Assembly (NCBI RefSeq): GCF_013294065.1
Contig: NZ_JABSNM010000028.1
Coordinates: 1-44,144, forward strand
Direction: 5' to 3'
Length of the DNA: 44,144 nucleotides
Source: Sphaerotilus uruguayifluvii
GTDB taxonomy: Bacteria > Pseudomonadota > Gammaproteobacteria > Burkholderiales > Burkholderiaceae_C
The translations under genes and the position numbers were made by a program. How positions within the stretch are numbered: position 1 is the stretch's first letter; each line of letters opens with the position of its first letter. A model generated the notes under the pieces. That model was not told the DNA's origin. It did not search any database and saw only the letters and a program-made list of their open reading frames with translations. Positions 9,778 to 34,636 of this stretch are shown in pieces.

Positions 9778-9936
9778 ACACGCAACCCACGAATTGCCCC
9801 CTGCGGCTGTTGCACAACGTAGCGCGGGTGGATTGATACACAACGAGACCATCCGGACCGATGGCATTGCAGGAGACAGAACGACCGTGCCGTGATGCGG
9901 ACACGGATAGCTCCACCTTCCAAGCGGAGGAATCAG

Positions 9937-13986: not shown

Positions 13987-15075
13987 TCAGACGGAATCAA
14001 GCAGCCGGGCCACGGCTGCCGCCAGGGCTTCCGGCGTCATCGCGCCGCCCAGAGCGCTGGCATCGATCTGGATGTACATGCGACCGTCACGGTCCTGGCT
14101 CCAGCGCCCCGTCGATCGCCCGTCACCTCGGAGCAGCTGACCGGCCGATCGCACTTCATCCGCCGCCGCGCCGACCAGCTCGGCCACCACCGCCGCAGCC
14201 CCAAGCACGCGCTCTTGCAGACGCAGGCGCTCGGCCCGGCGCAGCACGCCCTTGGGGTCGGCATCCAGGGCCGCCGTCAGCGTCTTGGCATGCCGGTGCG
14301 TGATCGTCGTCGGCGAGGCAAAGCAATCGATCACGGCCGCCGGCAGATCGGCCACCAGCAGCACGTTCGCCACCCAGGTGTGCGACACCCCCAGCGCATC
14401 GGCCAAGCGGCGGTTTGACAGGTACAGCCCCTGATCCAGCGCACGCCGGTACATCATCCCCTGCTCGTAGGGCGACAGGTCCGCACGCTCGCGGTTCTCG
14501 CGGTCCATCATCGCGAACAGGTCCGCATCCGACAGCGCTTGCGTTTCCACGGTCGCCAGCACCGGCAGGCCCAGCTCGGCGCAGGCGCGGTGACGCCGAT
14601 GCCCGAAGACCAGCTCATAGCGGTCCGGCTGATCCACGAGCGGCCGGACCAGGATGGGCTGGACATTGCCGCCGGCCTGCTGGATGTCGCGCTTCAGGCT
14701 CTGGAAGGCCGGATTGGCAAAGGCGTCCGCGTGTCGGTTGGCCCAGCGGCTGGGCACGATCTGCGCCGTGTCCAGCCGACGCGTGACCGCAGCACCGTCG
14801 TAAGCGCTCAGCTGTTCCTTGAGGCGGCTGATCTCGCTCTCGGTCGCCAGCATCTGGCCACGGAACTGCAGCATCTGGCCCGGACCGGTGCGCGGCACGC
14901 TGCGGGGCACCACGGGCGGAAACTGAGTCCCCGCCGGGGCCGGCTGCGCAGCCGGAACGGCCGGTGCATCGTCCTGCCGCGGCCCGATGGGCGCAGCAGC
15001 AGGGAGGAGGGGAGAGTTGCCCGTGAGTGCCCGCAGGCTGTCGGTGACGGACTGCAGCTTCGACTTCGTGCTCAT
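13987..15075 (-). CDS. parB: ParB-family partition protein
   Basis: This 362-residue ParB/RepB/Spo0J-type centromere-binding protein has an N-terminal Pro/Ala-rich linker (residues 1-60) and a ParB/sulfiredoxin CTPase domain containing GGNVQPILVRPL and the box GHRRHRACAELGL. An HTH region follows (LSNRRLADALGVSHTWVANV). The C-terminal part (about 270-362) probably dimerises. The start at 15075 follows AAGAGAAC. It lies 56 bp downstream of parA in the same direction, with a TGGCAACC palindrome in the gap. Its 3' end is immediately bordered by an IS remnant, so the downstream region was probably replaced. Confidence 0.92.
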   Translation of the reverse strand: MSTKSKLQSVTDSLRALTGNSPLLPAAAPIGPRQDDAPAVPAAQPAPAGTQFPPVVPRSVPRTGPGQMLQFRGQMLATESEISRLKEQLSAYDGAAVTRRLDTAQIVPSRWANRHADAFANPAFQSLKRDIQQAGGNVQPILVRPLVDQPDRYELVFGHRRHRACAELGLPVLATVETQALSDADLFAMMDRENRERADLSPYEQGMMYRRALDQGLYLSNRRLADALGVSHTWVANVLLVADLPAAVIDCFASPTTITHRHAKTLTAALDADPKGVLRRAERLRLQERVLGAAAVVAELVGAAADEVRSAGQLLRGDGRSTGRWSQDRDGRMYIQIDASALGGAMTPEALAAAVARLLDSV

Positions 15076-15107
15076 GTCGTTGTTCTCTTGCTAACTGACT
15101 GGCTGAC

Positions 15108-15124
15108 TGGCAACCGGGTTGCCA
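15108..15124. promoter_or_regulatory. palindrome TGGCAACC-G-GGTTGCCA, candidate parS or Par operator
   Basis: The perfect 8-bp inverted repeat with a 1-bp centre lies in the 56-bp gap between parA and parB. The same 8-bp arms recur at the 5' end of parA (16327-16345). Placement next to par genes and recurrence suggest a ParB- or ParA-binding site. Confidence 0.55.
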
Positions 15125-15131
15125 CAGTGAC

Positions 15132-16385
15132 TCAGACCGCCGCGCGGCGTGCGCGCCAGGCCTCGACCAGCGACTCCTCGACCAGATCGACGAAGCGGTC
15201 ATAGGCATCGAGCGCACGCTTGTAGGTCTTGACCGCACCTTCGTACTTCTGGATGTCGTAGACCGTCGCGAACTCAGCCGCCTTGTTGCTTGTGACCGAG
15301 GTCTTCGGGATCTCGACCGGCAGCACATACTCGCCATAGGTCGCCTGGATCCACTGACGCACCGCAGGCGAGGCAGTGTCGGTGTGATCCACCCGACTCA
15401 GCAGGATGTGCAGGAAATCGAAGGCCTTGCGGGCGTCTTCCGGCTCCTGCTCGTCCAGGCTGGCGCCCAGGTCCGACAACAGTGCCCAGAACTGCGCCGA
15501 GCTGGCGAAGTCGAGCCCGGACGGCGGCACCGGCACCACCACGCCGTCCGCCGCCCACAGCCCGTTGATCGTCACGTAGGACAGCGAGGGCGGGGTGTCG
15601 ATGATGATGACGTCATACAGATCGCGGACCGACTCCAACCCCTGGTTCAGCACATCCCAGAAACGCACGGACGAGTCGCTCATCTGGCGAGCCGGCAGCG
15701 CGAACTCGGCCGAGAAGAGAAACGGCGCAGCCGCCACCAGATCGATGCCATCCCAGTAGGTCGATCGGATCGCCGGGGTGATGTCATCGCTGGCGCCGTG
15801 GCACAGCGGCGCGATGGTCATGTCCTCGCTGACCTCGGTCTCGGGCAGGATGCCATGCAGGGTGGTCAGCGAGCCTTGCGGATCGATGTCGATGGCAAGC
15901 ACTCGGTGGCCCCGCATGCTCAGGCCCTGGGCCAGGATCATCGCGCTGGTGGTCTTCGAAACGCCGCCCTTGAAGTTGGCCACCGCAATGCACAGCGCCG
16001 GCTGACCACGCGGCCGCATCTTGTCCTTGCGGTAGGTGCGGGCCCAGATCCGGGCCTCGGTCAGAGAGAACTCCCGCTTGCCTCCGTTGGGCGTGAGCTT
16101 GCCTGACGGCAGGTCACCCTTGGTGACACGGTAGTTCACATGCGGCTTGTCCACACCGCACAGCGCCGCGACCTGAGCCGTCGAGAACACCGGCGCCACC
16201 TTGCGCGACTCCGGCGCAAGCAGCCGTCCGCGGATCTGCTCGACCATGCTTGAGGCACGCGCAGAGATCGCATGAATGCGCTGCATGTCGATCAGATGAC
16301 GAGGAGACACAGAGAGGAGAGGGTCGCTGGCAACCTGGTTGCCAGCCTCTGCGGACAGGGTTCGAGCGACTTTTGGGGAGGTCAT
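15132..16385 (-). CDS. parA: ParA-family partition ATPase with N-terminal DNA-binding region
   Basis: This 417-residue ParA of the long (type Ia) class has a MerR/HTH-like N-terminus (FSTAQVAALCGVDKPHVNY, KREFSLTEARIW) and the deviant Walker A FKGGVSKTTS. It also has AIDIDPQGSL (A') and VIIIDTPPSLSY (Walker B). It would segregate the replicon with ParB and repress its own operon. The ATG at 16385 was chosen although no ribosome site is clear; an upstream TTG at 16439 would add 18 residues. It is divergent from rep, and the 477-bp gap between them is the likely origin region. Confidence 0.9.
   Translation of the reverse strand: MTSPKVARTLSAEAGNQVASDPLLSVSPRHLIDMQRIHAISARASSMVEQIRGRLLAPESRKVAPVFSTAQVAALCGVDKPHVNYRVTKGDLPSGKLTPNGGKREFSLTEARIWARTYRKDKMRPRGQPALCIAVANFKGGVSKTTSAMILAQGLSMRGHRVLAIDIDPQGSLTTLHGILPETEVSEDMTIAPLCHGASDDITPAIRSTYWDGIDLVAAAPFLFSAEFALPARQMSDSSVRFWDVLNQGLESVRDLYDVIIIDTPPSLSYVTINGLWAADGVVVPVPPSGLDFASSAQFWALLSDLGASLDEQEPEDARKAFDFLHILLSRVDHTDTASPAVRQWIQATYGEYVLPVEIPKTSVTSNKAAEFATVYDIQKYEGAVKTYKRALDAYDRFVDLVEESLVEAWRARRAAV
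16327..16345. promoter_or_regulatory. palindrome CTGGCAACC-T-GGTTGCCAG inside the parA 5' end
   Basis: The perfect 9-bp inverted repeat with a 1-bp centre encodes the GNQVAS stretch of parA. It shares its 8-bp arms with the site at 15108-15124 and is the second member of the candidate Par binding-site pair. Confidence 0.5.
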
Positions 16386-16862
16386 GAGGGCAGTCTTGTT
16401 GCTTCCCGGACAGTCTACTTTTTTCCACCCTCGTTTCAACGCATCAGCGCAACAAGATTTGGAAAACGGTGAGACAATTTGGGGACCGCACTTTTTCAGG
16501 AGACTTTATGGGGATCCCGGATGAGCCAGGACGGCCGCCGGATTGGTTCCAAACGGAGGCAAGTGACCAGCCTCACGGACCTCCGCTTCGGACACCCCAG
16601 ATCCCCATATCCACTCCGGAACTACCCCAGAAGCTCTCCGCAAAAGCCACCAAGATCCCCAGAAGCTCTCAGCGAGTCTCCCACAGACTCTCCGCGACAA
16701 TCCCATATCCACTCCACAAAAGACACGTAAGTCTTTGATCTAAAACGTTTTTTTGGCTCTTCAAATCTTCAAGTATTCAAGTCTTGTATTTCAATCTATC
16801 AAGAGGAGTCCCCATGGGGATCCTCGCGTTGTTGATGTGAACAAAAGACTCCGTCCTGTGAC
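16386..16862. other. putative replication origin region between parA and rep
   Basis: No gene is seen in this 477-bp gap. It holds repeats: CCCCAGAAGCTCTC at 16625-16638 and 16657-16670 (32-bp spacing), and CCATATCCACTCC with its leading ATC at 16601-16617 and 16700-16715. An inverted repeat AAAGAC-N6-GTCTTT lies at 16719-16736. Next to rep is an AT-rich stretch (about 16738-16800) with TTCAAATC, TTCAAGTA, TTCAAGTC in tandem-like order. A TTTTCCACC at 16420-16428 is a poor DnaA-box match. Iteron-like repeats plus an AT-rich zone beside an initiator gene fit a plasmid origin; the rep and parA promoters must also lie here. Confidence 0.55.
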
Positions 16863-18398
16863 ATGGCCTTTGGACCACACCTCCGCCACCAGGCAATGGC
16901 GAAAGAGAGATGTGAATTGACAAGCTCACAGTTCGCCGACAAGCTAGCGCGCTTACCTTTGCAACGCTCCTTTGATCTCGTGCATCAGACCGACTGTGGC
17001 AACCCAAGCTTGGCTGATGGGACTGTGCATGACGCGACCGATCCGAAAGAGAAGGAGCAGGCTGTTGCCAAGGCCAACGAAGCCATCGCCATCCGTCCAA
17101 AGCGCGGGAAACTGACGCTGCTGTCGCGTCGCATTTACAACGTCTTCCTGTTTCACGCACAAAGGCAGGGTGTCGACAAGCCGACCTACTGCCTGCCACT
17201 GGCTGAACTCATCAAGGACGCACGCTTCAACTCGAACAACACCGAGATCCTGAAGTCGCACATTCGTGACATGCAAGCCACCACCATCGAGTGGCACACC
17301 AGTGTGGGTGGCACACGCAGATGGACCTCGACGCAGCTGCTTGGAACGGTCTCAATCGACGATCCAGGCCGCGGGCGGCCGTGTCATATTTCGTGGACCT
17401 ATCCCGATCCGATACGTGAACACCTGATCAGGCCTGCGCACTACACACGCATCCTCCTCGAGATCAGCTCGCAGATGCGCAGCTACGCAGCCTCCGTGCT
17501 GTACGAGCTGGGGGCACGCTATCTCTCATCGCCAACGCGGCTGACCATGCGCGAGGACGTGCTGTGGTGGGCCTCCGTCCTGACGGGGCGCAGCGACATC
17601 GTCAAGGTCGACTACCGCATCCTTCACCGCGACACGATCAAGAAAGCGCTGGCTGAGCTGGACACCCTCAGCGAGGACTTCCGGATGGAAGTCGTTGAAC
17701 ACAAGCGGGGGCGCAAGGTCGAGGAGCTGCAGTTCAAGATTCTTCCCAAGGGAGAACAGCCTGCTGACAGCCGATCCTCCCCAGTGCCTCTGGCCTGCGT
17801 GCTGGACTTGGCACTTATCGAACAGCTCGTGAGCCTGGGTTTCAAGCCCAGGGATGCGCAAGATTTCTACGCTGCGACGGATGAAACGCTGCTTCGTGCC
17901 GCACTCGATCACGTCACTGAACGGATGCAGAACGCGGCTCTTCCACCACTGAAGTCGCCTGCAGCCTATCTGCGCACGGCCGTGAAGAAAAAGTATCCTG
18001 GCTTGCCAGCACGCGAGCGCACAAGCGAGGGCACGGCAAGCGCCGTATCCGCTCCGGCCGTGCCTGAAACCCGTCTGGCAATCCATCCCGGGCCTGAGCT
18101 CAGCATGGAAGAACGGTTGAGACAGCTCAGGGAGGACTGGAACCAGCACCAAGCCACGATGGCACGCACCCGATTTCTGGCGATGGGTGTCTCCGAGCAA
18201 GATGCCTACGTCTCCCGCTTCGAGATCGAGCGACTGCCACACGTGGTCATTCCGGTGGCCAAGGCCTGGCGAAAGGACGGCATCGACAGCCGCATTGCGG
18301 GCAGCACCTTCAACCGGTGGCTGGCAAGCGTGCTGTGGCCGGGTGACGCAACGGATGCGGAGCTGCTGAGGTTCGCGGTGTCGCTCAAGCGGGGCTGA
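16863..18398 (+). CDS. replication initiation protein, Rep_3/RepB-like
   Basis: This 511-residue protein resembles initiators of betaproteobacterial megaplasmids and chromids. A winged-helix initiator region begins near residue 78 with KRGKLTLLSRRIYNVFLF and continues LPLAELIKDARFNSNNTEIL, followed by SSQMRSYAASVLYELGARYL, a typical Rep_3 segment. The C-terminal third (after about 300) is variable and Pro/Ala-rich. The protein would bind the iteron-like repeats just upstream and recruit the replisome. The start at 16863 has no clear ribosome site; ATG at 16896 (MAKERCEL) is an alternative. It is divergent from parA and convergent with the defence operon, 73 bp away. Confidence 0.82.
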   Translation: MAFGPHLRHQAMAKERCELTSSQFADKLARLPLQRSFDLVHQTDCGNPSLADGTVHDATDPKEKEQAVAKANEAIAIRPKRGKLTLLSRRIYNVFLFHAQRQGVDKPTYCLPLAELIKDARFNSNNTEILKSHIRDMQATTIEWHTSVGGTRRWTSTQLLGTVSIDDPGRGRPCHISWTYPDPIREHLIRPAHYTRILLEISSQMRSYAASVLYELGARYLSSPTRLTMREDVLWWASVLTGRSDIVKVDYRILHRDTIKKALAELDTLSEDFRMEVVEHKRGRKVEELQFKILPKGEQPADSRSSPVPLACVLDLALIEQLVSLGFKPRDAQDFYAATDETLLRAALDHVTERMQNAALPPLKSPAAYLRTAVKKKYPGLPARERTSEGTASAVSAPAVPETRLAIHPGPELSMEERLRQLREDWNQHQATMARTRFLAMGVSEQDAYVSRFEIERLPHVVIPVAKAWRKDGIDSRIAGSTFNRWLASVLWPGDATDAELLRFAVSLKRG

Positions 18399-18471: not shown

Positions 18472-21333
18472 TCACTGATCGGACTCGAACTCGGCAGAGT
18501 TGAAGCGCAGCACCTTGCAGTTCTCGTTCACCGCGCGTTGCACACCATCGTCAAACCCGACGGGCGCCTCTGCCTCGAGCTCGATCGAGATGCGCACCTT
18601 CACGCCGTGCTTGGCGGTGAACTGCTGAACCACCTCGTCAACGATGTCGGCGAACTGCTTCTTGGCCAGGGTGGGGTCGAGGTCAATGCTGCCGTAGAAG
18701 CGGCGCTTGGGTGCTGCGGGTTGGGGCGTCGGGGCGCCCGTGGAGCCGCCGGTGGCTCCATACCCTGACGTGCCTTCTTTGACGGCAGGGGATGGCGTAC
18801 CGGTGTTCGTTCCGCTGGGGGCCGGTGCAGGCGGATGCGTCGGAGTGGTCTTGCGGGCAGCCTCTTCTTCAGCGCGCAGCTTCTCGGCATAGGCCTGGGC
18901 AGCCGGCGGCGCGATCAGCAGCAGGCTGGCATCCAGGATGATGGTGCTGCGCTTGCCGTAGACGAAGCCCAGGTAGCGCCCCTCGGACTTGCCTTGAGCC
19001 ACGGCGAAGAAGTCCTGGCTCTCGACGCCCGCGCCCACGGTCAGTTGGAAGATCTGGTCGTCCTTCAGCCGCGGCAGGTACAGGTACTGGCAGGTCTTCT
19101 GCCAGACCTCCAGGGCGTTGGCCTCGGGCTGCCCATCCTTCCAGAACCACTGGCGCAGCATGGCGGCCATGTGGATCGGGGACCATTCGGTGATCAGGAG
19201 TTCGTTCTCCTTCATCACGCGCTCGATTTCCTGCGACGCGTTGGCCGCGCCCGGGTTCAGCGGGAAGTGCTCCCACTGCACCTCGCTCAGGCCCTTGCCG
19301 GGGCGGGCTTCTTGCACCGGCGCCAGCAGCCACTTGTAGGTCTCGCGCATCATGCGACGCAGCGCGTCGTTGGCGTCATCAAGTCCTTTCTGCGCCTGCT
19401 TGGTCTGGATGCCGTCCAGGTTCAGCTTCCCATCCTTGCCGTCGCTGACGATCGACTGCCACGCCAGCATGGAGCGCACCTGGTCGCGCAGGCGGGACAC
19501 GTTGTCGTAGTCCGCCGCTATGAAGATCAGGCGGTTCTGCTTCTGGCGGGGTGACTCGCCGCGGTTCTTCAGGATCTCGTTGGCGCGATCAACGGCGAGG
19601 TTGGTGCCGCTGCGGCTGAAGCCCGCGTCAGGTGCCAGCACCACGAGGCGCAGCGCCCAGTCGTCGGGCACATCGCCACTGCCGGTGAACACGTGGGTGC
19701 CGGTGAACATGCCCGTGGCCAGGCTCTTGCGCACGCGGTCCTGGATGGCCGGGAACACGTCCTCCTTGTCCTGGAAGCGGCGCTTGCGGTCCTCCATCTC
19801 CCGGCGCAGATTGGGCCGGGTGTCGAACCAGAAGCGGTTGCCGCCGCTGTTCAGGTAGTGCAAGCGGTCACCCAGGCGGCGCAGCGCGTCCTTGTAGACG
19901 CCCAGCTGCTGGCCGGGGATGGCCACACCCAGCACCACACGCTCCAGCTCCAGCCCGCGCACCACCTGGTTGGCCGTGCTTGGCGCGCTGCCCAGGAAGA
20001 TGGCCCGCGCCGTGCGGCGGCAGGCCTGCACCGCGCCCAGGCGGGTGTCCTGGTTCTCGATGCCGGTGGTCTCGGCGCGCTCGCCGTCCACGTCGCGTTC
20101 CAGCACCGGGTCCCAGCCCTGGGGCAGGTAGTAGATGATGTCGTTGCGGGTGTCGGCATCGTAGACGGGCAGGCTGCCCGGCATGATCAGCGGGTCCTTG
20201 TTGTCGTCCTTCCACAGCCGGTGGATGACCTTGGCCATCAGCTTCAGCACGCCACGGGTGCGCTGGAAGTTGTCCAGCGACGACCAGTCCTCGTACAGCC
20301 GGTCGAACACCTCGGGGTGGATTGGGTAGGCGTGCAGCAGGCGCTCGTAGTAGCGGCCTTCCTGCGTCTCACGCGGCAGGTCGTCCTTGTGGGCGACGTA
20401 GTAGTCGGCGAAGGCGCGGCACACGCTCTCAGCGGCCAGCCGGTCGCCGATCTGGCTGAACAGGCGACGGCGCACGATCTCGAAAGCCTCTTCGGTGGCC
20501 ACCGGCTTCCACAGCGCCTGCACCCGGCCGAAGTAGTGCGCCAGGGCGGCCAGCGCTTTCACGCCGCGTTGGCTACCGGCTTCCTTGTCCGACTCCGGCA
20601 GCGAGGCCAGCAGCACGGCCGTGGGCACGGCCTTCAGCGCTTCGGTCAGGGCCTGGATGAAGCTGAGGTTGGAATCGAAGGTGCCGCCCGTCAGTGCCTT
20701 GCCTTCCTCGAACTGGCGCACGTAGGCCACCAGCTCGTCGATAAGGATCACGCAGGGCGCATAACGCGCCAACAGCGTCTCCAGCACAGCCTTGCCCGGC
20801 GAGGTGCCCGAGGCGTCTGCATCGGCCACCAGGGCGTAGCCATCCGCACCGCCCAGCTGCCAGGCCAGGTCGCCCCACAGCGTGCGCACGGTCACGCCGC
20901 CGTGGCTCACGGGCTGGTTGGGCGAGGACTTGATGCCGTCCAGCACCGCGATGCGCGCGTGTGGCAGCTCGGCCACGCCGGCAACGTCCAGGATGGCCGA
21001 GACGCCGGGCATGTCGCTGGCGGGCGCCTTGGCGCTGGCCAGGTGGTAGACCGCCAGCATCGTGTGCGTCTTGCCGCCGCCAAAGGCCGTCTGCAGCTGG
21101 ATGACCGGGTCACCGCCCCGACCCGACAGGCGCTTGACCACCGAGTCCAGCAGCAGACGCATGCCCTCGGTGATGAAGGTGCGCTGGAAGAACAGCGCCG
21201 GGTTCTGGTACTCGGCCGTGGCGGTGCCGGCATGCACGCGCGAGATGTCGGCGGCGAACTCGGCTTGGGCGAAGGTGCCCTTGAGCACGTCTTCGTGGGG
21301 GACGGCGATCTCGCGCCAGGGTTTCAGAGTCAT
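18472..21333 (-). CDS. DUF499-family ATPase of a defence operon
   Basis: The 953-residue protein begins [19 protein letters not shown], typical of DUF499 proteins. Walker A FGGGKTH lies at residues 84-90 and Walker [12 protein letters not shown] at about 194-204, with a long helical body. Residues 820-880 form a Pro/Gly/Thr-rich linker, and a small C-terminal domain follows ([20 protein letters not shown]). DUF499 ATPases repeatedly occur with DUF1156 methyltransferases and helicases in defence islands; the mechanism is not known. The start at 21333 follows GAGGAAA, 76 bp after the DUF4276 stop. It is the last gene of the operon. Confidence 0.85.
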
Positions 21334-21409
21334 GACAACGTTTCCTCGGCGTCGTTTTGAAGTCCCATCGTGGAACTGCGCCGTATCCTGAGAGCAAACA
21401 GAACTTTGA

Positions 21410-21967
21410 TCAGATAGACAGGCGTTTCAAGCCGTCGATGAGTGCGCAAAAACTGGCAGAAGTGTTGCGGCCGTCGATTCGAAGGTGGGGCCCGATCGCA
21501 CGTGAACCTGCCAGTTTCTGGTAGCGGGACTTGGTCAGCTTGTCGAGCTCTTCGGCTGGATTGGCCAGACGGTCCGGGGTCTTGAACTTGCTGGACGCCT
21601 GCTGTTTCGCCAGTCCGCGCAACTCGAGCCCTTGCTCGACCGCCGCCAGATCACCCAGATAGAACGTCTCCAGCTCGTGACAGGCGATGCGAACCAGCGC
21701 CTGAGACCGACCGGCGGCCTCGCACAGCAAGCGCAGTTCCTGCTTGAGCAGACGGCAATCCGAGCTGTCTTGATCGCGCAGCACCACGAAGCACGAGTCA
21801 GGTGCCAGCCAATGCTTCAAGCGATGTGTCAGCCGCTTGTGCATGTCCTGCTTGCCCTCGAAGACGATGTACTGGACCTGCACCCCGGGCGGCAGCAGAC
21901 GGGGCAACAGGCCCTGCAGCATCGCCCGGGCCGAGGGCTCTTCCAGACAGAAGACCAGCGTGCTCAT
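21410..21967 (-). CDS. DUF4276-family (Toprim-like) protein
   Basis: This 185-residue protein has a DUF4276-like layout: N-terminal [13 protein letters not shown], acidic centre [11 protein letters not shown], then [14 protein letters not shown] and a C-terminal [11 protein letters not shown]...[11 protein letters not shown]. The acidic residues (E, DxD, E...D) resemble Toprim/OLD-type nuclease sites. Its ATG at 21967 overlaps the stop of the ATPase gene (ATGA), as in ATPase-nuclease pairs whose products work together. It is probably an effector nuclease released or activated by the ATPase; that role is inference. Confidence 0.75.
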
Positions 21968-23154
21968 GCCGGATCGACTCCCGTGAAGAAGCCCTGCTTC
22001 CACAGATAGCCGAGCTGATCGCCTTCGGCCATGTAGGCGGCCAGCTGGGCGTCGTCGCGCGCGCGCTTGACCTGGGTGTAGCCGGCCTGCTTGGTCAGCC
22101 AGAACACCTCGTCAAGTCGCAGGGCGTTGAGGAAGTCCGGCGAGTGGGTCGAGACGATCACCTGGCCACCGCGCTGCGCGTAGGCCCGGAACTCCTCGGC
22201 CAGCTCCCACAGCAGGGTCGGGTAGAGCTGGTTCTCGGGCTCCTCGATGCACAGCAGCGGATGCGGCGTCGGGTCGTGCAGCAGCAGCAGATAGGCGAAC
22301 ATCTTGAGCGTGCCGTCCGAGACGAACCGGTCGATGAACGGATCGACGAACGCCCCATCGCGAAACTGCAGCAGCAACCTGCCGTCTTCGGTCAGCTTCG
22401 GCGTGACCTCGCTGACACCCGGCACGCGGTGCTTCATGCGGTCGAGCACCTGCGCGAAGAGATCCGGGTGGTTCTCGTAGAGGTTGCGCGCCACCAGCTG
22501 CAGGTTGTCGCCCGTGACCGAGAGGTGGTCGTCGATGCCGATCGCGTCCTTGCTGCCGCGCGCCAGATTGATGTGGAAGTCGGAGACGTGCCAGCTCTCG
22601 ATCATCTGCCGGAAGGCATTGGCGGCCTTGAAGCGCTGGAACTGCCCCAGCCCGCTGATGGCCAGCGTGTCGGGGGAGACCTTCTGCTCCTCGCGCTCCA
22701 GTTCCTCGTCCGGGCGATTGAAGTCTTCCTCGTTGGTGATGGCGTAGCCTTCGCCGAGCCGGAAGTCGATGAAGTGGAACGGCTTGCCACTGGCGCCGCG
22801 CTTGTAGCGCAGCACCTCGCGCAGCACCACCGGTCGGCCCTTCTGCTCGCCGATCACCAGCCAGTAGGTCACGAGCCGGTTCACGCCGGCGATGTCCACG
22901 CGGAACTTGATCTCGATCTCGATCGGCTCGGTGCGTGCCACGCCGCGCGACAGCACTTCGGCAAACCCGCCCCGGCTCTGCAAGGCCGGGCGCACGCCGT
23001 GCAGCATGCTGTCCTTGAGCAGGCCGAACACGCTGAACAGCGTCGTCTTGCCGGTGCCGTTGGCGCCTACCACCACGCACAGCCGCGGCAGCTCGGTGAT
23101 GCGCACATCCCGCAGGCTCTTGAAGTTCTTCAGCGACAGGCTCTCGATCTGCAT
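21964..23154 (-). CDS. OLD/AAA_21-type ATPase of a defence pair
   Basis: This 396-residue ABC-like ATPase starts MQIESLSLKNFKSLRDVRI at 23154, preceded by GAGAGGAAG. Walker A is GANGTGKTT (30-38), the signature is SDGTLK, Walker B is LLCIEEPENQLYP and the H-loop is IVSTHSPDFLNAL. It is similar to OLD, RecF-like and AriA-type ATPases that sense phage components. It is paired by a 4-bp overlap with the DUF4276 gene and comes 16 bp after the methyltransferase stop. No Toprim domain is fused to it; the DUF4276 neighbour may supply the nuclease. Confidence 0.82.
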   Translation of the reverse strand: MQIESLSLKNFKSLRDVRITELPRLCVVVGANGTGKTTLFSVFGLLKDSMLHGVRPALQSRGGFAEVLSRGVARTEPIEIEIKFRVDIAGVNRLVTYWLVIGEQKGRPVVLREVLRYKRGASGKPFHFIDFRLGEGYAITNEEDFNRPDEELEREEQKVSPDTLAISGLGQFQRFKAANAFRQMIESWHVSDFHINLARGSKDAIGIDDHLSVTGDNLQLVARNLYENHPDLFAQVLDRMKHRVPGVSEVTPKLTEDGRLLLQFRDGAFVDPFIDRFVSDGTLKMFAYLLLLHDPTPHPLLCIEEPENQLYPTLLWELAEEFRAYAQRGGQVIVSTHSPDFLNALRLDEVFWLTKQAGYTQVKRARDDAQLAAYMAEGDQLGYLWKQGFFTGVDPA

Positions 23155-23170
23155 TGCGGCTTCCTCTCGC

Positions 23171-26068
<2,898 letters not shown>

Positions 26069-26079
26069 ACTTATTTTTA

Positions 26080-26724
26080 TTAAGCCGATTGATTCGATAA
26101 AACGTGTTTGATGGCCGTTGCAAATGGCAGGTGTGATGTTCGGATTATTTCATTCTCAAGTTCAGGCAGCCATTCGTTCTCTGGGTATTCCTGCGCCATT
26201 TCCGCAAACGCTTCTGCGGTCTTGATGTAGTGGCGAACCGCCTCACGGCGGATTTGATTCAGTGCGCCATCGAGTTTGAGGATCCTTATGGTTTCCTCTG
26301 CCCGATGTCGCTCCTCGTCTGATAGACCATTTCTTGGGCACACCGTACCATTCGGCAAAAACAAGAGAAAATTCTCAGGGTCTTCCACATCGGGTTTAAT
26401 CAGCACTTCATGCGGATAGTTGCCGCACTTGTCTTTGTGATCCCCACAGGTTCCAGCGCGATTGCAAGAGCCAAACAGGTTGTGCCAATCAAAAGTTCCC
26501 TGAGGATGGCGTGATCGCTGGCGGAAATGCTCAATGTGTCGTTTGGTGGTGTCACTGACATCTGTCTCGCAATAAGCGCACCGCCACCCTTGCATCTGAC
26601 CAAAACTGTTCCAAATATCGCCCCTCTCGTCAGCGTTTGGGCAGGTGTCGCTCCATTGGTCTTGACCATGTCGGTAATTTTGCAGTCCGCCAGGGATGGC
26701 TGGGTCTCGATTAAGCTTGTGCAT
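26080..26724 (-). CDS. ptuB: PtuB-like HNH endonuclease (Septu-type)
   Basis: This 214-residue protein fits the HNH family found in Septu and retron-linked systems. It has the zinc pair CAYC (49-52) and catalytic HIEH (63-66), followed by FRQR and a second Cys group [14 protein letters not shown]. The start at 26724 follows GGGAAGAG and overlaps the preceding ATPase gene by 14 bases. In Septu, PtuB is the nuclease kept in check by PtuA and unleashed on infection. This DNA looks lower in GC than its neighbours, suggesting separate acquisition. It is placed between the ATPase and the DUF1156 gene. Confidence 0.82.
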
Positions 26725-28144
26725 CTTGCTCTTCCCCTGCGACCCGGCGTGGCAGCCTTTGTTTGAAGGTTTGTAAACGGATCATGCGCTCGCACTCCCG
26801 CATGACGGGATGGTTAGCGCCAAAGTGGTTTTCAAGCTGGGCACGCAAAGCCAAACCAGCATTTGTTGGATGAAGGTTTTGCTGAATCAGTGCGTGGTAA
26901 TCTGAAACCCAGCGTGCTTCATGGATGTTCGGAATGGGATCGACTCCCATGATCTCAGCCAGCAAATCCGAACTGGCAACCCCCCGGGTTTGCTGATTAA
27001 CTTTACTGACTGTGATGTTGCGTTGCCCAGTTTCTGGATCAAGTTCTTCATGCAAACGACGGATGCACGCTGCGTCAATGCTGGAGAGAACTTGCGGGCT
27101 GTGGGTGGTGACGATGAATTGAATTTGTTGGAAAGCTTCCATCAGTGAACCCAAAATGGTTTGCTGCCATGAAGGGTGCAAAAACATATCCACTTCATCA
27201 ATCAGCACCACACCTGGGGTTTGCCGTGCAGCTTCTACCCCTAAATGGGGGTTGAGTTTGCACGCCCGGAATGCCAAATCGGCCACCAGGGAAATGGCAT
27301 TGCGCAAACCATCACTCAAATCTTCAACCGGCATCAATCCGAGTTGATCATGCTGCATCACCAGTTGCTGTCCCAGGCTGGCTCTATACTCCAGATCACG
27401 CCACCCCGTTGGTTCTTGAACCAATGCATTGATGGCCGACTTAATGACGCCAATGATGGTTTCAAAACGCCCATCGTTGGGCGATAGCGTCCGCCCTTCT
27501 TGCATGAAGCTCTGAATTTCACGGTAGCTTCTAAAAACCCACCCATACCAAGCCGCAAACGCCTTGAAACTGGAAGAATAAGACAAGCAGTTCAAATAAC
27601 CTGATGTGCGTGAAAACTCGGAAACATCCAGCACCACATCCCGAGCCTCCGAGCTAAAGCGCCCCTCAAACCACAGCCGCGATGTGCCCAAATAAGAAAC
27701 CAGCGGCAGCGTAACATCGGCCCCCGCACGAACTTGGCGTTCTAACTGCTTGCCATAGGCCGTGAAAGCTCGTGTGGTCGCATCCCCGCGCGTATTGGTG
27801 CCTGGGCGCAAGCTCTCGCGGAATTGCTCCCATGGGGGTTCATCCGTGCTTTCCCGCTCCCACTCTCCAGTGGCACGGATCACGGCGGGAACCTGCCCCT
27901 CCATCGTGCCGCCCTCCATCCATTGGCGCCGCACATCCGTCACTTGAATGGTGGCGCTCTTGCCGGTTTGGCTGCCCAGGTCAAAGCCCTTGACGAAGGG
28001 CCACAACGCAATGCGCGCCGCATCCAACACCGAGGTTTTGCCTCCACCGTTGGGCGCCACCAACACCGTCAACTGCTTATGCAGATCAATGCTCAGCGAC
28101 GAAAAGCAGCGGAAGTTTTGGAGTTCGATTTTGTTCAAGCGCAT
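26711..28144 (-). CDS. ptuA: PtuA-like AAA/ABC ATPase (Septu-type)
   Basis: This 477-residue ATPase begins [20 protein letters not shown]. Walker [10 protein letters not shown] lies at 30-38, the signature is LSDGLRN, Walker B is [14 protein letters not shown] and the switch is [11 protein letters not shown], giving the ABC-ATPase arrangement of PtuA. It overlaps the helicase stop by 10 bases and the ptuB-like start by 14, so the three are probably translated together. In Septu, PtuA senses infection (for example via nucleotide changes) and controls PtuB; here it may also answer to the methyltransferase/helicase core. An alternative name is a generic AAA_21 defence ATPase. Confidence 0.8.
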
Positions 28145-31100
28145 GGGCTGCTTCTCTTGAGGAGTTCATTCAAATCCAGATTCACGCTCGTCACCGCCCA
28201 GTCCGGCTCCCGCGTGAAGGGCCGCCGAATGTAATGCGGCCCGTCCACGCTGTCACCCTCGCCGACCAGCACGATGGCCAGCCAGAACTTGTCCTGCTGG
28301 TTCAGCGCGTAGAGCACTTCGTTCCTGGTCACGGTGATGGTGCTGCTGCCCTTGGCACGGCCCTTCACTTCGATGTGGCGCACCTCGGGAAGGCGGCCGT
28401 TCACGGCCGGCGGGATGGCCGTGATGTCCCAGCCGCACTTCTCGGTCGAAACGTCGATCACCTCGTGGCCCAGGGCACGCTCGGCCGCCATGACGGCCTG
28501 CATCGCCAACTGCTCCACCCGTGAGCGAGCGGCCGCATCAGGACTCCAGCCGGGCTCCCCCCGGCGCTGCATCAGCAGACCGGCCGGAATCACCAGCGCG
28601 CCGCCCACCACCACCGGAGTGGCCGAGACCACATGGCGCTGGGCCAGCAGTTCCTGCTCCCGCGCACGCCTGCGGGCGGAGAGCTCATCGAGGGTGCGCT
28701 GCACGTTCTCCAGTGGCAGGCGCACGTCCTTGCCGGCGGCCTTGTCTTCCCTGAGCTTGATGTAGCGATCCGACCAGTGGTTGATCTCCTTGACCAGCCG
28801 TTCATGCACGGCTGCCAGGGTCTTGTCGATCTGGGCCTCGCGGTGCTGGCGCACCTCGTTGAAATGCTCGGGTGCCAGACGGGCCGAGGCATGAGCCAGA
28901 GCGAGCTGCTCCAGATCACGGGCGATCCACGGTGCGGCCAGCACATCCGGGACGAGCGCCAAGTCTGCCGCGTCAGCAGCCTGCAGATCCAGATGCGGCG
29001 CCCAGCCGGCGTGGATGGCGTGGCCCTGTGGATCGATCTCGACGAACTGCAGCCGGCGCGAAGCGATGCGATCCGGGTCTGCTCCCTCTCGTACCGCGTG
29101 GTCGATGATGAACAGCACCCGGGGTGTCAGCCCGAAGTCGGCCGGATCGATCAGAACGGCCCCCTGCTTGAGCAGGGGGCGGTGACGCTCCAGCATCAGG
29201 TCGGTCACCGCCTGCATCAGCGGATGGGCCGGGTGGATCAGGCTGGCCGTGGCGGCGTTGGGGCGGCCGACCATGCGCACATGGCCCTTCTCGAAGCACA
29301 CACGCTCGTAGCGGCGCAGCACGGGGGCCAGATGGCGGCGGTCGCGGCCGCTGATCTGTCGGTCGCGCTCGCGGATCTCGGCGGGCACGTTGGTGATTTC
29401 CCAGCGGCCGGTCTCGCGGGCGCGCAGGTCGCCACCGAGCTGCTGGAAGGCCTGGCTGAAGAACGCACGGATGAAGTAGGGCTGCAGCTTGCGCGCCTCG
29501 GCCTTTTCCATCTCCTCCTTCAACGCGAACAGACGCCGCGCGTCCATCACCTCATCGCACAGGGCGTTGCGCTGGATGATGGCTTCCAGGTGGGCGGTAT
29601 CCAGGGCTCCATCGACCTGGCGGTGCAGCCGGGCACGCACCTCAGGGTCATCGCCGTAGCGAATGGCGTCGATCAGCAGATCCTTGAGGCTGCGGTCCTC
29701 GAACACCTCGCCCAGGATGTCGAACACGCGCCCCTTGAGCGCCACGCGCTCGATCTCCAGCTTCTCGAACAGGCGTTGGAAAACGGCACCTTCACGCGTC
29801 TCCTTGGCCACCAGGTTCCAGAGATGGCAGACCTCGGTCTGACCGATGCGGTGGATGCGGCCGAAGCGCTGCTCCAGCCGGTTCGGGTTCCACGGCAGGT
29901 CGTAGTTGACCATCAGATTGGCGTTCTGCAGATTCACGCCTTCGCCTGCCGCATCGGTGGCCAGCAGCACACGCACGACTGGATCGTTGCGAAACAGCTC
30001 CTGCACCTGGCGGCGATCCTCGCGCTTGACGCCGCCATGGATCATCACCACCGACTCATCCGTGCCGATCAGGCCGCGGATCTTCACGGCCAGGTAGTTC
30101 AGCGTGTCCTTGTGCTCGGTGAAGATGATGAGCTTGCGCTGGCGGCCGTCGGCGTCTCGCATCTCGGGCGTGTCCTGCAGCAGGCGCGACAGCTCATCCC
30201 ACTTGCGGTCCTGGCTCGAATGCACCACCTGGCGGGCCTGTTCCTCCAGGGACTGCAGGCTGACGATCTCGGCTTGCAATTCGACGAGGGTGCGGGCGGC
30301 AGTCGCCTGATCGACCACGGATTCCTCAAAGGCCTCGTAGTCCTCGGGCGTGAGCGCGTCGGCCGATTCCCAGATGTCCTCGGGTGAGCTGGCCCGCAGA
30401 CTGTCCTCGACAGGCAGCGTTTCCGCCAGGGATCGGCGGGACGAGGCACCACGGGCGCGCAGCGTCTCTTCTTCGACCCGCTGCATCAGACGTGCGCGCC
30501 GCCGCTTGAGCGACTGGTAGATGGCCTCTGGGCTGGAGGCCAGTCGCCGCTGCAGGGAAGTCAGTGCGAAGCCTACCGTGCCTTTGCGACCGCCATCCTG
30601 CAGCTGGTCGGCGCGGTTCATCTCTTCCTTGACGTAGGCCGTGACGCCTTCGTAGAGCGCGCTCTCCAGGCCGGATAGGGTGTAGTTGACCGTGAGTGCC
30701 CGCCGCTCGGGGAACAGCGGCGTGCCGTCAAACTTCAGCAGGTCTTCCTTGACCATGCGCCGCATCAGGTCGGTGACATCGACCTTGTGAGCCTTGTCGC
30801 GGAACTTGCCGTAGAAGCGGTCGGCATCCAGCAGGCTCATGAAAAGCTGGAAGTCCTCTTCCTTGCCGTTGTGCGGCGTGGCGGTCATCAGCAGGAAATG
30901 GCGCGTCGTCGCGCCGAGCAATTCGCCGAGCTGGAAGCGCCGGGTCTTGTTGATCTTGTTGCCGAAATAGTTGGCCGAGAGCTTGTGCGCTTCATCGACC
31001 ACCACCAGGTCCCAGCGTGTCAGGCGCAGCTTGTCCTGCAGTTCAGTGCTGCGCGCCAGCTGATCGACGCGGGCCACCATCAGGTCCGCATCATCGAACG

Positions 31101-31680
31101 CGTTCCCCCGGCTCTGTTCGACCATCTCGCGGCTGAACAGGGTGAAGTCCAGACCGAACTTCTCGGCCATTTCATCCTGCCACTGCTCAACCAGACTGCC
31201 GGGCGCCACGATCAGGACCCGGCGTGCATCAGCCCGCATCAGCAGCTCGCGGATCAGCAGCCCCGCCATGATGGTCTTTCCAGCGCCCGGGTCGTCCGCT
31301 AGAACGTAGCGCAGAGGCTGCCGCGACAGCATCGACTCGTAGACCGCCGTGATCTGGTGCGGCAACGGCTCGACGTTGGAGGTGTGGACCGCCATCATCG
31401 GATCGAACAGGTGCGCCAGATTGATGCGCCAGGCCTCGGTGGCCAGCTTGAACGATTCCCCCGGAGCATCGAAAGCCCAGGGGCGTCCGGATGTGGCGAC
31501 GGACAAGTTCGGCTCATCTGCGCGGAAGAGCAGTTGCTCCACCAGCTTTCCCCCCGGCTCGCTGAAATAGACCGTGATCGAGTCAGGTCCCGCAGGCCGT
31601 GTGAACAGCACGGAGATGACTCGATCAGGAACGATTCCGTTGATCGCCAGATCCGTCTTGATGTCTTCCAGCTTCAGCAT
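28135..31680 (-). CDS. Snf2-like helicase with C-terminal DUF3883-like domain
   Basis: This 1,181-residue SF2 helicase has Walker [13 protein letters not shown] (129-140), a DEAH box VVVDEAHKL (227-234) and SAT-like [13 protein letters not shown]. Its second RecA domain has [23 protein letters not shown] and [12 protein letters not shown]. The last part of about 100 residues contains RHIEVKGR and ...TRNEVLYAL, a DUF3883-like region that resembles a restriction-endonuclease (PD-(D/E)xK) fold by its ExK. Large helicases of this type accompany DUF1156/DUF499 genes in defence islands. It is the first gene of the leftward operon, so its 5' region carries the promoter. The ATG at 31680 lacks a strong ribosome site. 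Confidence 0.87.
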
Positions 31681-32519: not shown

Positions 32520-33488
32520 ATGGCACACCTCATCGAACAGATGGCCTACGTCGGCGACACCCCCTGGCACGGCCTGGGCAACGAACTGCCCGCCCGCCAG
32601 CCCATCGAAGTCTGGGCCGAGCGGGCGGGCATGAACTGGACCATCGAGCAGGCCCCGGTGCAGTACGTCGTCAGGCAGTCCGGCTCCTTGAGCGAGATCT
32701 GCGCCTTCGACGACCAGAAGGTGCTCTTTCGCAGCGACACCAAGGCGCCGCTGTCGGTGGTGGGCAACCGCTACCACGTCGTGCAGCCGCGCGAGGTGCT
32801 GGAGTTCTACCGCGACCTCACCGAGGTCTCCGGCTTCGAGCTGGAGACGGCCGGCGTGCTGAAGTCGGGCAAGAAGTTCTGGGCGCTGGCGCGCACTGGC
32901 CAGGAAAGCGCCCTCAAGGGCACCGACCTGGTCAAGGGCTACCTGCTGCTGGCCACCTCCTGCGACGGCACCCTGGCCACCACCGCCACGCCCACCACCG
33001 TGCGGGTGGTCTGCCACAACACCCTGTCGATCGCGATCCAGGGCGCCACCGGCGCCATCAAGGTGCCGCACAACACCAGCTTCGACGCCCAGGCGGTCAA
33101 GCGTCAGCTCGGCATCGCCGTCACCCAGTGGGACGGATTCATGTACCGCATGCGCACCCTGGCCGAGCGCAAGGTCAGGAGCCATGAGGCGATGAACTAC
33201 TTCCTCAAGGTGCTGTGCCAGACCGACGTCACCAGCGACAGCGCGCAGGGCCTCAGCAACGAGCGTGCGCTCAAGAAGGTCCAGGCCCTCTACGACGGTC
33301 AGGGCCGGGGCGCCGAGCTCACCGCGGCCAAGGGCACGGCCTGGGGCCTGCTCAACGCCGTCACCGAGTTCGTCGACCACGAGCGCCGGGCGCGCAGCAC
33401 CGAGTACCGGCTTGACTCGGCCTGGTTCGGCCAGGGCGCGGCGCTCAAGCAGCGCGCGCTCGACCAGGCCCTGCAGCTGGTGGCCTGA
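32520..33488 (+). CDS. DUF932-family protein
   Basis: This 322-residue protein begins MAHLIEQMAYVGDTPWHGLG, the conserved start of DUF932 (phage/plasmid-like TIGR03299) proteins. Later blocks KAPLSVVGNRYHVVQPREVL, TPTTVRVVCHNTLSIA and AKGTAWGLLNAVTEFVDHER also fit. Family members are common on plasmids, phages and integrative elements next to recombination genes; the biochemical function is not settled. The start at 32520 has GGAG eight bases upstream. It leads a three-gene rightward block with the YqaJ nuclease and the Cys-cluster protein. Confidence 0.88.
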   Translation: MAHLIEQMAYVGDTPWHGLGNELPARQPIEVWAERAGMNWTIEQAPVQYVVRQSGSLSEICAFDDQKVLFRSDTKAPLSVVGNRYHVVQPREVLEFYRDLTEVSGFELETAGVLKSGKKFWALARTGQESALKGTDLVKGYLLLATSCDGTLATTATPTTVRVVCHNTLSIAIQGATGAIKVPHNTSFDAQAVKRQLGIAVTQWDGFMYRMRTLAERKVRSHEAMNYFLKVLCQTDVTSDSAQGLSNERALKKVQALYDGQGRGAELTAAKGTAWGLLNAVTEFVDHERRARSTEYRLDSAWFGQGAALKQRALDQALQLVA

Positions 33489-33529
33489 AAACGCGCCACG
33501 CCTCTCTCCCCCTTCCACGAAAGCCTTCC

Positions 33530-34558: not shown

Positions 34559-34636
34559 GCCCGCCGGAGCTGGGCATGCCTGTCCGGGCGCGTGGGCCTC
34601 ACCGCCCGGGCGCCTTTCACCTTCTGGAGACCGACC

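What the first reader, a model, noticed from the sequence alone, without database searches (positions are those of the whole stretch)
18472..31680. Seven-gene defence operon combining a DUF1156/DUF499/helicase core with two ATPase-effector pairs
Helicase, PtuA, PtuB, DUF1156 methyltransferase, AAA ATPase, DUF4276 and DUF499 ATPase are in one leftward operon with overlaps or short gaps. The core types are known from defence islands, but this full set in one transcription unit looks like a composite or undescribed system in which methylation, helicase scanning and nuclease release could be linked.
Basis: partly seen in the sequence, partly recalled or inferred. Interest (0 to 1): 0.78.

Follow-up and report, generated by a model that had tools for sequence, protein, structure and literature searches.

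The report
Hma defence operon carrying two modules
A contig that looks like a plasmid of a Sphaerotilus-like bacterium carries a known three-gene anti-phage operon (Hma) with two further known anti-phage gene pairs lodged between its genes; the set looks like two interchangeable cartridges in two slots rather than a new seven-part machine.

Summary
They are hmaA (helicase-nuclease), ptuA-ptuB (type I Septu), hmaB (DUF1156 methyltransferase), a HEC-01 ATPase + DUF4276 pair, and hmaC (DUF499 ATPase). Hma, Septu inside Hma, and HEC-01 ("Hma-embedded candidate") are all described: a new member of a known kind, not an undescribed seven-gene system. In 95 Hma loci two intervals (A/B, B/C) act as cargo slots, cleanly empty or filled. 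Slot contents assort independently; Septu + HEC-01 together occurs only in the window (1 of 73; 1.2 expected). The nearest relative (Sphaerotilus hippei, core 82-93% identical) has different cargo in both slots. Embedded HEC-01 and embedded Septu are each polyphyletic among stand-alone relatives. DUF4276 is predicted to be a Toprim nuclease, making HEC-01 a split OLD-type pair. One regularity goes further: cargo families keep to one slot (23 of 23; 6 of 6 recognisable modules in a hold-out), with exceptions at looser thresholds and one in the hold-out. None of the passages I opened states this; the primary preprint could not be read.

The parts
28135..31680 (-). hmaA: SNF2-type helicase with C-terminal PD-(D/E)XK-like (NOV_C) nuclease domain, 1181 aa
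   Evidence: PADLOC HmaA 2075.7 bits; Pfam Helicase_C, SNF2-rel_dom, NOV_C; residues D1085, E1104, K1106 kept in 78 of 78 loci (window included) where all three align
26711..28144 (-). ptuA: OLD/ABC-type ATPase of type I Septu, 477 aa, in slot 1 (hmaA/hmaB); overlaps hmaA by 10 nt
   Evidence: PADLOC PtuA 555.3 bits; phmmer to solved PtuA 8ee4 E 8.6e-113 over residues 1-459; NGGGKT, LIDEVD, TTHS; NCBIfam retron-type PtuA model 281.5 bits, under its cut-off of 500
26080..26724 (-). ptuB: HNH nuclease of Septu, 214 aa
   Evidence: PADLOC PtuB 291.5 bits; NCBIfam NF041761 184.2 bits (cut-off 150) and TIGR02646 116.1 (cut-off 52.15); no Pfam match at 0.001; GC3 0.521
23171..26068 (-). hmaB: DUF1156 DNA methyltransferase, 965 aa
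   Evidence: PADLOC HmaB 1774.8 bits; Pfam DUF1156 102 bits; DPFAGGG at 142 and DPPYY at 573
24359..24628 (-). hypervariable stretch of HmaB, residues 481-570, immediately before DPPY: probable target-recognition segment (inference)
   Evidence: 23-40% identity to the S. hippei HmaB in this stretch, against 63-100% in the other 30-residue windows (last 5 residues 40%); the DNA match breaks over the same stretch
21964..23154 (-). HEC-01 ATPase (OLD/ABC type), 396 aa, in slot 2 (hmaB/hmaC)
   Evidence: PADLOC PDLC04144 704.9 bits, profile begins at residue 40 of the longest ORF; NGTGKT, CIEEPEN, STHS
21410..21967 (-). HEC-01 DUF4276 protein, predicted Toprim nuclease, 185 aa; overlaps the ATPase by 4 nt
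18472..21333 (-). hmaC: DUF499 AAA+ ATPase, 953 aa, no sign of an N-terminal HEPN fusion
   Evidence: PADLOC HmaC 1592.2 bits over residues 1-950 of 953; Pfam DUF499
26069..28134 (.). cargo slot 1 (between hmaA and hmaB)
   Evidence: same interval is empty (-15 to 33 nt) in 14 and filled (251 nt or more) in 66 of 80 measurable loci
21334..23170 (.). cargo slot 2 (between hmaB and hmaC)
   Evidence: same interval is empty (6 to 77 nt) in 30 and filled (496 nt or more) in 56 of 86 measurable loci; one of the 56 (L063) looks like an N-terminal extension of hmaC
13987..18398 (.). plasmid maintenance genes next to the operon: ParB (13987-15075 -), ParA (15132-16439 -), Rep3 initiator (16863-18398 +)
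   Evidence: Pfam; 73.5% DNA identity over 78% to a Sphaerotilus sulfidivorans plasmid NZ_CP035709.1

Best explanation
This is a probably plasmid-borne Hma (BREX-related, type-1 BR-like) restriction-like system whose two intergenic slots hold two separately acquired, self-contained back-up modules: a type I Septu (PtuAB) between hmaA and hmaB, and HEC-01, a split OLD-type ATPase + Toprim nuclease, between hmaB and hmaC. Most likely working (inferred): HmaB methylates adenines at a site set by its variable 481-570 segment to mark self; HmaC assembles on unmarked DNA; HmaA translocates and cuts it. Septu and HEC-01 are expressed from the same transcript and act as independent second lines that sense infection, or inhibition of the first line, and cleave nucleic acid (tRNA for Septu by analogy; RNA or DNA for HEC-01), stopping growth of the infected cell. 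Shown here: gene identities, intact motifs, operon layout, different cargo around a conserved core, independent assortment of the two slots, polyphyly of the embedded modules. Inferred: all activities, the self-marking role, the back-up role, the single transcript.
For: Families. Slots and different cargo. Independence of the two slots. HEC-01 outside Hma. Polyphyly: HEC-01 ATPase tree (23 rows), 5 embedded rows not one clade (AU p 1.8e-111; 3 changes, 2 forced by starred branches); PtuA tree (42 rows), 22 embedded rows not one clade (AU p 4.8e-49; 6 changes). Toprim identity of DUF4276. Published: Septu in Hma (PMC12255303, PMC8565338, passages seen); HEC definition (PMC12111858, passage seen); OLD-ATPase + nuclease back-ups in BREX and BR systems (PMC12839542, section 35 part 1 of 2 seen); Septu cleaves tRNA-Tyr (PMC13096335, passages seen).
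Against: No activity was measured. HEC-01's status as a defence rests on PADLOC naming; the paper that tested HECs is not held, so whether HEC-01 itself was active is unknown to me. Cargo keeping to its own slot (23 of 23 families) could mean that cargo is not wholly indifferent to its neighbours, which sits awkwardly with pure independence. HmaB is called an m5C enzyme in PMC8565338 and an N6-adenine enzyme in PMC12839542; DPPY favours the latter (recalled) but the modification was not tested. The trees cannot tell entry into Hma from escape out of it.
Confidence: 0.85

Rival explanations
1. The seven genes form one integrated machine: Hma detects unmodified DNA and hands activation to PtuAB and HEC-01, which serve as its effectors.
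For: One co-directional operon with overlaps or short gaps; cargo families keep to one slot; ATPase-nuclease pairs are common in both slots.
Against: Slot contents are independent (MI p 0.25 and 0.475); Septu+HEC-01 no more often than chance; 0 of 20 HEC-01-like regions from other genomes show hmaB or hmaC; 14 of 80 slot-1 and 30 of 86 slot-2 intervals are empty, so the core exists without cargo; HmaA keeps its own nuclease triad in 78 of 78 aligned loci.
Confidence: 0.08
2. About position only (compatible with the best explanation): cargo is held in Hma because conserved flanking core genes let homologous recombination swap the intervening segment; there is no functional reason for the position.
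For: DNA homology to the S. hippei locus is nearly confined to core blocks and resumes at the hmaB start codon and 6 nt inside hmaC; cargo families change often on the HmaB tree (for example HEC-09 16 changes for 19 loci, HEC-01 5 for 5); slot fidelity follows directly from homologous exchange.
Against: Embedded HEC-01 falls in two or three separate places among stand-alone copies, each in slot 2, and embedded PtuA in several, each in slot 1; if these are separate entries, they need not have respected slots. 188 of 200 cargo ORFs lie on the operon strand, which suggests selection for co-expression.
Confidence: 0.4
3. Chance neighbours in a defence island, without shared expression.
For: The promoter and terminator scan gives no evidence either way.
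Against: Overlapping reading frames, 188 of 200 cargo ORFs on the operon strand, clean empty/filled states.
Confidence: 0.02

Closest known systems
Hma system (helicase-methylase-ATPase; PADLOC 2021, PMC8565338)
   Same: Same three genes; near full-length profile matches to all three; [quoted passage not shown]
   Different: Nothing in the core; this locus carries cargo in both slots, as do 40 of 73 loci with both slots measurable, window included.
Type-1 BREX-related (BR) system (PMC12839542; outline, sections 28, 29, 30, 33 and part 1 of 35 read)
   Same: DUF499 ATPase, DUF1156 methyltransferase, SNF2 helicase with C-terminal PD-(D/E)XK nuclease; OLD-ATPase + nuclease back-ups reported in BREX and BR loci.
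   Different: No sign of the N-terminal HEPN that many DUF499 proteins have; two back-up pairs at once.
Septu type I (PtuA + PtuB; solved PtuA 8ee4)
   Same: PtuA near full-length match (381 bits), PtuB over NCBIfam cut-off, no reverse transcriptase in the operon.
   Different: Lodged between hmaA and hmaB instead of standing alone.
HEC-01 (Hma-embedded candidate 1; PADLOC-DB 2.0.0)
   Same: Both proteins match HEC-01 models and lie between Hma genes.
   Different: On the tree the window's ATPase lies among stand-alone copies (highest identity 70%) rather than with the other embedded ones, though its exact place is on unstarred branches.
OLD family nucleases and PARIS (AriA/AriB)
   Different: Two separate genes, unlike OLD; DUF4276 is another sequence family than AriB (recalled); no tRNA target shown.

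Membership tests
Hma system | hmaA-hmaB-hmaC: helicase, methyltransferase and ATPase genes in one operon | tested here: met
   PADLOC HmaA/B/C, near full-length; same strand and order
Hma system | anti-phage activity | not testable with these tools
   no phage assay; PMC12839542 (section 28 read) says a later study confirmed a phage defence role for the helicase; that study was not seen
Type-1 BR system | C-terminal active PD-(D/E)XK nuclease on the helicase | tested here: met
   NOV_C domain 1055-1141; D1085/E1104/K1106 in 78 of 78 aligned loci; that this is the active triad is recalled, activity not tested
Type-1 BR system | N-terminal TUDOR domain on the helicase | not tested
   no Pfam match reported there; structure not predicted
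Type-1 BR system | absence of type-2 marks (HKD nuclease, DUF3780) and type-3 marks (PglZ) | tested here: met
   none among the Pfam matches of the seven proteins or of 30 other window ORFs; not every window ORF was scanned
Septu type I | PtuA ATPase + PtuB HNH nuclease as a pair, without a reverse transcriptase | tested here: met
   no reverse transcriptase among the seven proteins or the 30 other window ORFs scanned
HEC-01 | ATPase and DUF4276 proteins matching the HEC-01 models, lying between Hma genes | tested here: met
   704.9 and 276.6 bits; position between hmaB and hmaC
OLD-type Toprim nuclease (for DUF4276) | Toprim fold with E ... DxD ... E metal-binding pattern | tested here: met
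OLD nuclease | ATPase and Toprim in one polypeptide | tested here: not met
   two genes overlapping by 4 nt; so it works like OLD but is not an OLD protein
PARIS | AriB-type Toprim partner and response to an anti-restriction protein | tested here: inconclusive
   ATPase matches AriA among 111 families; all 9 families matched by the partner are HEC-01 models; trigger not testable

The most novel reading that the evidence does not exclude
Hma operons are two-cartridge carriers with slot-specific repertoires: one set of defence modules (Septu, HEC-08, HEC-09) sits only between hmaA and hmaB, another (HEC-01, HEC-02, HEC-05, PDC-M61, PDC-S02) only between hmaB and hmaC, and this holds across repeated moves between Hma and stand-alone contexts because position sets dosage, timing or contact with a core protein that the cargo guards. 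In 95 loci 23 of 23 families on the operon strand kept to one slot (shuffles: mean 4.1, maximum 9), and in 21 hold-out loci 6 of 6 modules of these families (found in 4 loci) fell in the expected slot. Exceptions exist: modules I label by eye as Schlafen-like and PHP-ATPase, in slot 1 of L080 but slot 2 of L021 and L042 at looser thresholds, and a slot-1 pair of L277 that resembles a slot-2 pair of L175.
Probability: 0.25. Interest if true: 0.6.

Novelty: new member of a known kind. Interest (0 to 1): 0.35.

Why it matters
It shows that what reads like one seven-gene machine is a modular carrier: a conserved restriction-like core with different back-up modules in fixed places. The slot regularity, if it holds and has a functional cause, would make the old question of why defence systems sit inside one another testable by moving a module from one slot to the other. 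As a single finding the locus is an ordinary though tidy example.

Tried and rejected
Considered and rejected: (1) an undescribed seven-gene system: PADLOC models exist for every gene, and co-occurrence is at the level of independent assortment. (2) A retron: no reverse transcriptase among the proteins scanned; PtuA matches Septu 8ee4 best in the PDB and is under the NCBIfam cut-off for the retron type. (3) HEC-01 as an Hma-only invention: related ATPases are found in 27 of 369 genomes of the class at E 1e-20 or better, window's own included. (4) Slot 2 'filled' by N-terminal fusions of hmaC: 1 of 56 (L063). (5) Association of filled slots: Fisher p 0.069, not significant. (6) Circularity of the 44,144-base contig: no terminal overlap at the six lengths tried, 20 to 127 bases, so a closed plasmid is not shown.

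Led nowhere: the search for 'HEC-01' gave 1 relevant paper of 16; the primary preprint (Payne 2024) is not held, so I cannot say whether slot preference is described there; the DUF4276 profile found no relative in the PDB by sequence (one hit, E 0.36); HmaB, HmaC and the HEC-01 ATPase have no PDB match at the cut-offs used; viral contigs gave one Hma locus.

Weak points and rows left out: the 80 loci are the best 80 of 162 relatives by similarity to HmaB, so distant Hma systems are under-sampled. My slot measure looked only for hmaA upstream and hmaC downstream on the same strand within 9 kb; in L069 neither was found, only short fragments, with a Septu-like pair about 7 kb upstream. Cargo families are connected components at 0.35 bits per residue; at 0.25-0.15 one family and at 0.1 three appear in both slots, one of these a 48-member group, presumably the ATPases. 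The 152 occurrences count both genes of a pair. 'Septu' in 22 loci means a PtuA-family protein; 21 of them have a recognised PtuB, L175 not. Of 20 cargo proteins sent to PADLOC, 14 matched at 1e-10 and 6 did not; the labels PIN, PHP-SMC and Schlafen are mine, by eye. The HmaB tree is a fast tree of 94 of 95 loci; the missing one is, by the counts, L175, whose HmaB is split; change counts do not tell gain from loss. The HEC-01 tree uses 23 rows chosen from the 37, leaving out more distant ones. The PtuA tree uses 20 stand-alone rows of 34 candidates scanned (13 not used, among them two Hma loci, and L209 dropped as short); 50 further viral hits were not scanned. It carries warnings on three long rows and on composition. 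Of the 20 HEC-01-like regions, 8 are 50% or more identical and have DUF4276 beside them; the rest are more distant. The hold-out set is small; L269 and L270 had no measurable slot, and most cargo there matched no known family. Permutation treats occurrences as independent.
Full report
What is there. The window is one 44,144-base contig (C28 of 48) of a 4.9 Mb genome. On the minus strand from 31680 down to 18472 lie seven intact genes in one direction: hmaA, ptuA, ptuB, hmaB, the HEC-01 ATPase, the HEC-01 DUF4276 protein and hmaC. PADLOC scores are 2076, 555, 292, 1775, 705, 277 and 1592 bits. Pfam is consistent except that PtuB has no match; NCBIfam supports PtuB above its cut-offs and the others only below equivalog cut-offs or not at all. 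Junctions after correcting two start codons are -10, -14, +11, +16, -4 and +76 nt.

Where it sits. Beside hmaC are a Rep3 initiator, ParA and ParB; on the other side DUF932, a YqaJ recombinase and a Gp3-like protein on the opposite strand, then, among others, a DUF3987 protein and an integrase. The rep-par stretch matches a Sphaerotilus sulfidivorans plasmid at 73.5% over 78%.

Comparison with relatives. I assembled 95 Hma loci: the best 80 of 162 relatives from genome contigs, 14 more from genomes of the same family or order, two plasmid-collection records and one viral contig, and the window. In the table full-length hmaA hits lie upstream and hmaC hits downstream of hmaB wherever seen. The A/B interval is measurable in 80 loci and is either empty (-15 to 33 nt, 14 loci) or filled (251 nt or more, 66 loci); the B/C interval in 86 loci, empty (6 to 77 nt, 30) or filled (496 nt or more, 56); one of the 56 looks like an extension of hmaC. 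Both are filled in 40 of 73. Of 200 cargo ORFs of 100 aa or more, 188 lie on the operon strand (the ORF choice favoured that strand by a factor of 1.4 in length).

What fills the slots. Of 20 cargo proteins sent to PADLOC 14 matched at 1e-10 and 6 did not. By these and the window's own matches slot 1 holds Septu, HEC-08 and HEC-09; slot 2 holds HEC-01, HEC-02, HEC-05, PDC-M61 and PDC-S02, and PsyrT in L031. Modules can be stacked, for example HEC-09 + HEC-08 or PDC-S02 + HEC-02.

Different cargo around a near-identical core. The S. hippei locus has HmaA, HmaB and HmaC 84%, 82% and 93% identical to the window's, but in slot 1 a distant Septu (PtuA 29%, PtuB of another family) and in slot 2 HEC-02-family genes instead of HEC-01. 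DNA homology between the two contigs (46,800 of 46,897 bases compared) is limited to four blocks covering the core genes; one runs on about 100 bp into ptuA and one about 40 bp past hmaC; it resumes at the hmaB start codon and 6 nt inside hmaC. Within HmaB residues 481-570, just before the DPPY motif, are only 23-40% identical, while the other 30-residue windows are 63-100%, as expected for an exchanged target-recognition segment. The low GC3 of ptuA and ptuB (0.59, 0.52) against 0.79-0.90 for the core and 0.77-0.92 for HEC-01 suggests a more recent, foreign Septu.

Are the two pairs linked to each other? Among 73 loci with both slots measurable, Septu is in 22, HEC-01 in 4, both in 1, the window itself, with 1.2 expected (Fisher p 1.0); mutual information between slot contents is at the level of shuffles (p 0.25; 0.475 for the 40 loci with both filled). 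The window was the query, so its own count is not independent: the other 72 loci hold no case. HEC-01-like ATPases lie without hmaB or hmaC in 20 of 20 regions from 19 other genomes (taken from 35 listed places, one of them the window's); 8 of the 20 are 50% or more identical with DUF4276 beside them; two regions hold weak hits to the hmaA helicase. The pair also stands alone on two cyanobacterial plasmids and in two viral contigs.

Did the modules move? In a tree of 23 HEC-01 ATPases the 5 embedded ones are not one clade (3 changes, 2 forced by starred branches; AU p 1.8e-111): Aeromonas groups with a stand-alone copy, three others form their own clade, and the window lies among stand-alone copies on unstarred branches. 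In a tree of 42 PtuA proteins (22 embedded, 20 stand-alone) embedded ones are not one clade either (6 changes, AU p 4.8e-49), and related PtuA proteins carry different PtuB families (the window's PtuA is nearest to L031's at 57%, with a PtuB of another family). Both modules have therefore passed between Hma and stand-alone settings more than once; repeated entry is the likelier direction but the trees do not prove it.

Slot fidelity. All 23 cargo families on the operon strand with two or more loci (152 gene occurrences) are confined to one slot; shuffled slots give a mean of 4.1 and a maximum of 9. Changes on a fast HmaB tree are nearly as many as occurrences for most of the ten families counted (Septu PtuA 14 for 21, HEC-09 16 for 19, HEC-02 10 for 11, HEC-08 10 for 11, PDC-M61 8 for 9, PtuB family a 6 for 9, PtuB family b 6 for 6, HEC-05 5 for 5, PDC-S02 4 for 5, HEC-01 5 for 5), so simple inheritance of the whole operon does not explain it. 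In 21 further loci (13 genome regions; 6 plasmid regions; 2 plasmid regions fetched earlier) 6 of 6 modules of these families, found in 4 loci, fell in the expected slot. Against a strict rule: at looser thresholds one to three families appear in both slots, and L277 has in slot 1 a pair resembling one in slot 2 of L175. Homologous exchange through the flanking core genes would explain much of the fidelity without any function.

What is known. [quoted passage not shown] PMC12255303 gives 'Septu in Hma systems' as an example of embedding (passage seen). PMC12111858 defines HEC as Hma-embedded candidates confirmed to confer phage resistance, with HEC-04 as its case, and PMC12988326 says several HECs were active (passages seen). 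PMC12839542 (outline, sections 28, 29, 30, 33 and part 1 of section 35 read) reclassifies Hma as BREX-related and reports OLD-ATPase + nuclease pairs in such loci. The primary HEC paper (bioRxiv 2024.01.29.577857) was seen only as a reference. My searches (partial listings in 8 and 96) and the passages opened from them showed no statement of a slot rule, which says little since that preprint is missing.

Verdict. What goes beyond the passages I could read is the slot regularity.

Noticed in passing
95 Hma loci: Cargo families keep to one of the two slots of Hma; see the section on the most novel reading, with its exceptions (L080, L277).
   Followed up: partly
window 24359-24628: HmaB residues 481-570 are hypervariable even between two loci of one genus, directly before DPPY: a likely exchangeable target-recognition segment.
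   Followed up: partly
window 26080-28144: ptuA and ptuB have much lower GC3 (0.59, 0.52) than the surrounding genes, suggesting recent arrival from a lower-GC source.
   Followed up: no
window 32520-35557: DUF932, YqaJ-like recombinase and Gp3-like (recombination directionality factor-like) genes on the plus strand: a phage-like set on a plasmid-type contig.
   Followed up: no
window 9892-10755: An AfsA (A-factor biosynthesis hotdog domain) protein near MFS, SDR and HAD genes; from memory such proteins are better known from actinobacteria.
   Followed up: no
L031:8016-9985 and window 26080-28144: PtuA proteins 57% identical with PtuB partners of different families: the nuclease seems to be exchanged under a related ATPase.
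   Followed up: partly
L069:911-2883: A Septu-like pair (PtuA 38%, PtuB 28%) about 7 kb upstream of an hmaB whose hmaA and hmaC were not found intact nearby.
   Followed up: no
L029, L175: Hma loci with broken core genes (hmaA and hmaC in pieces in L029; hmaB in two frames in L175) but cargo still present.
   Followed up: no
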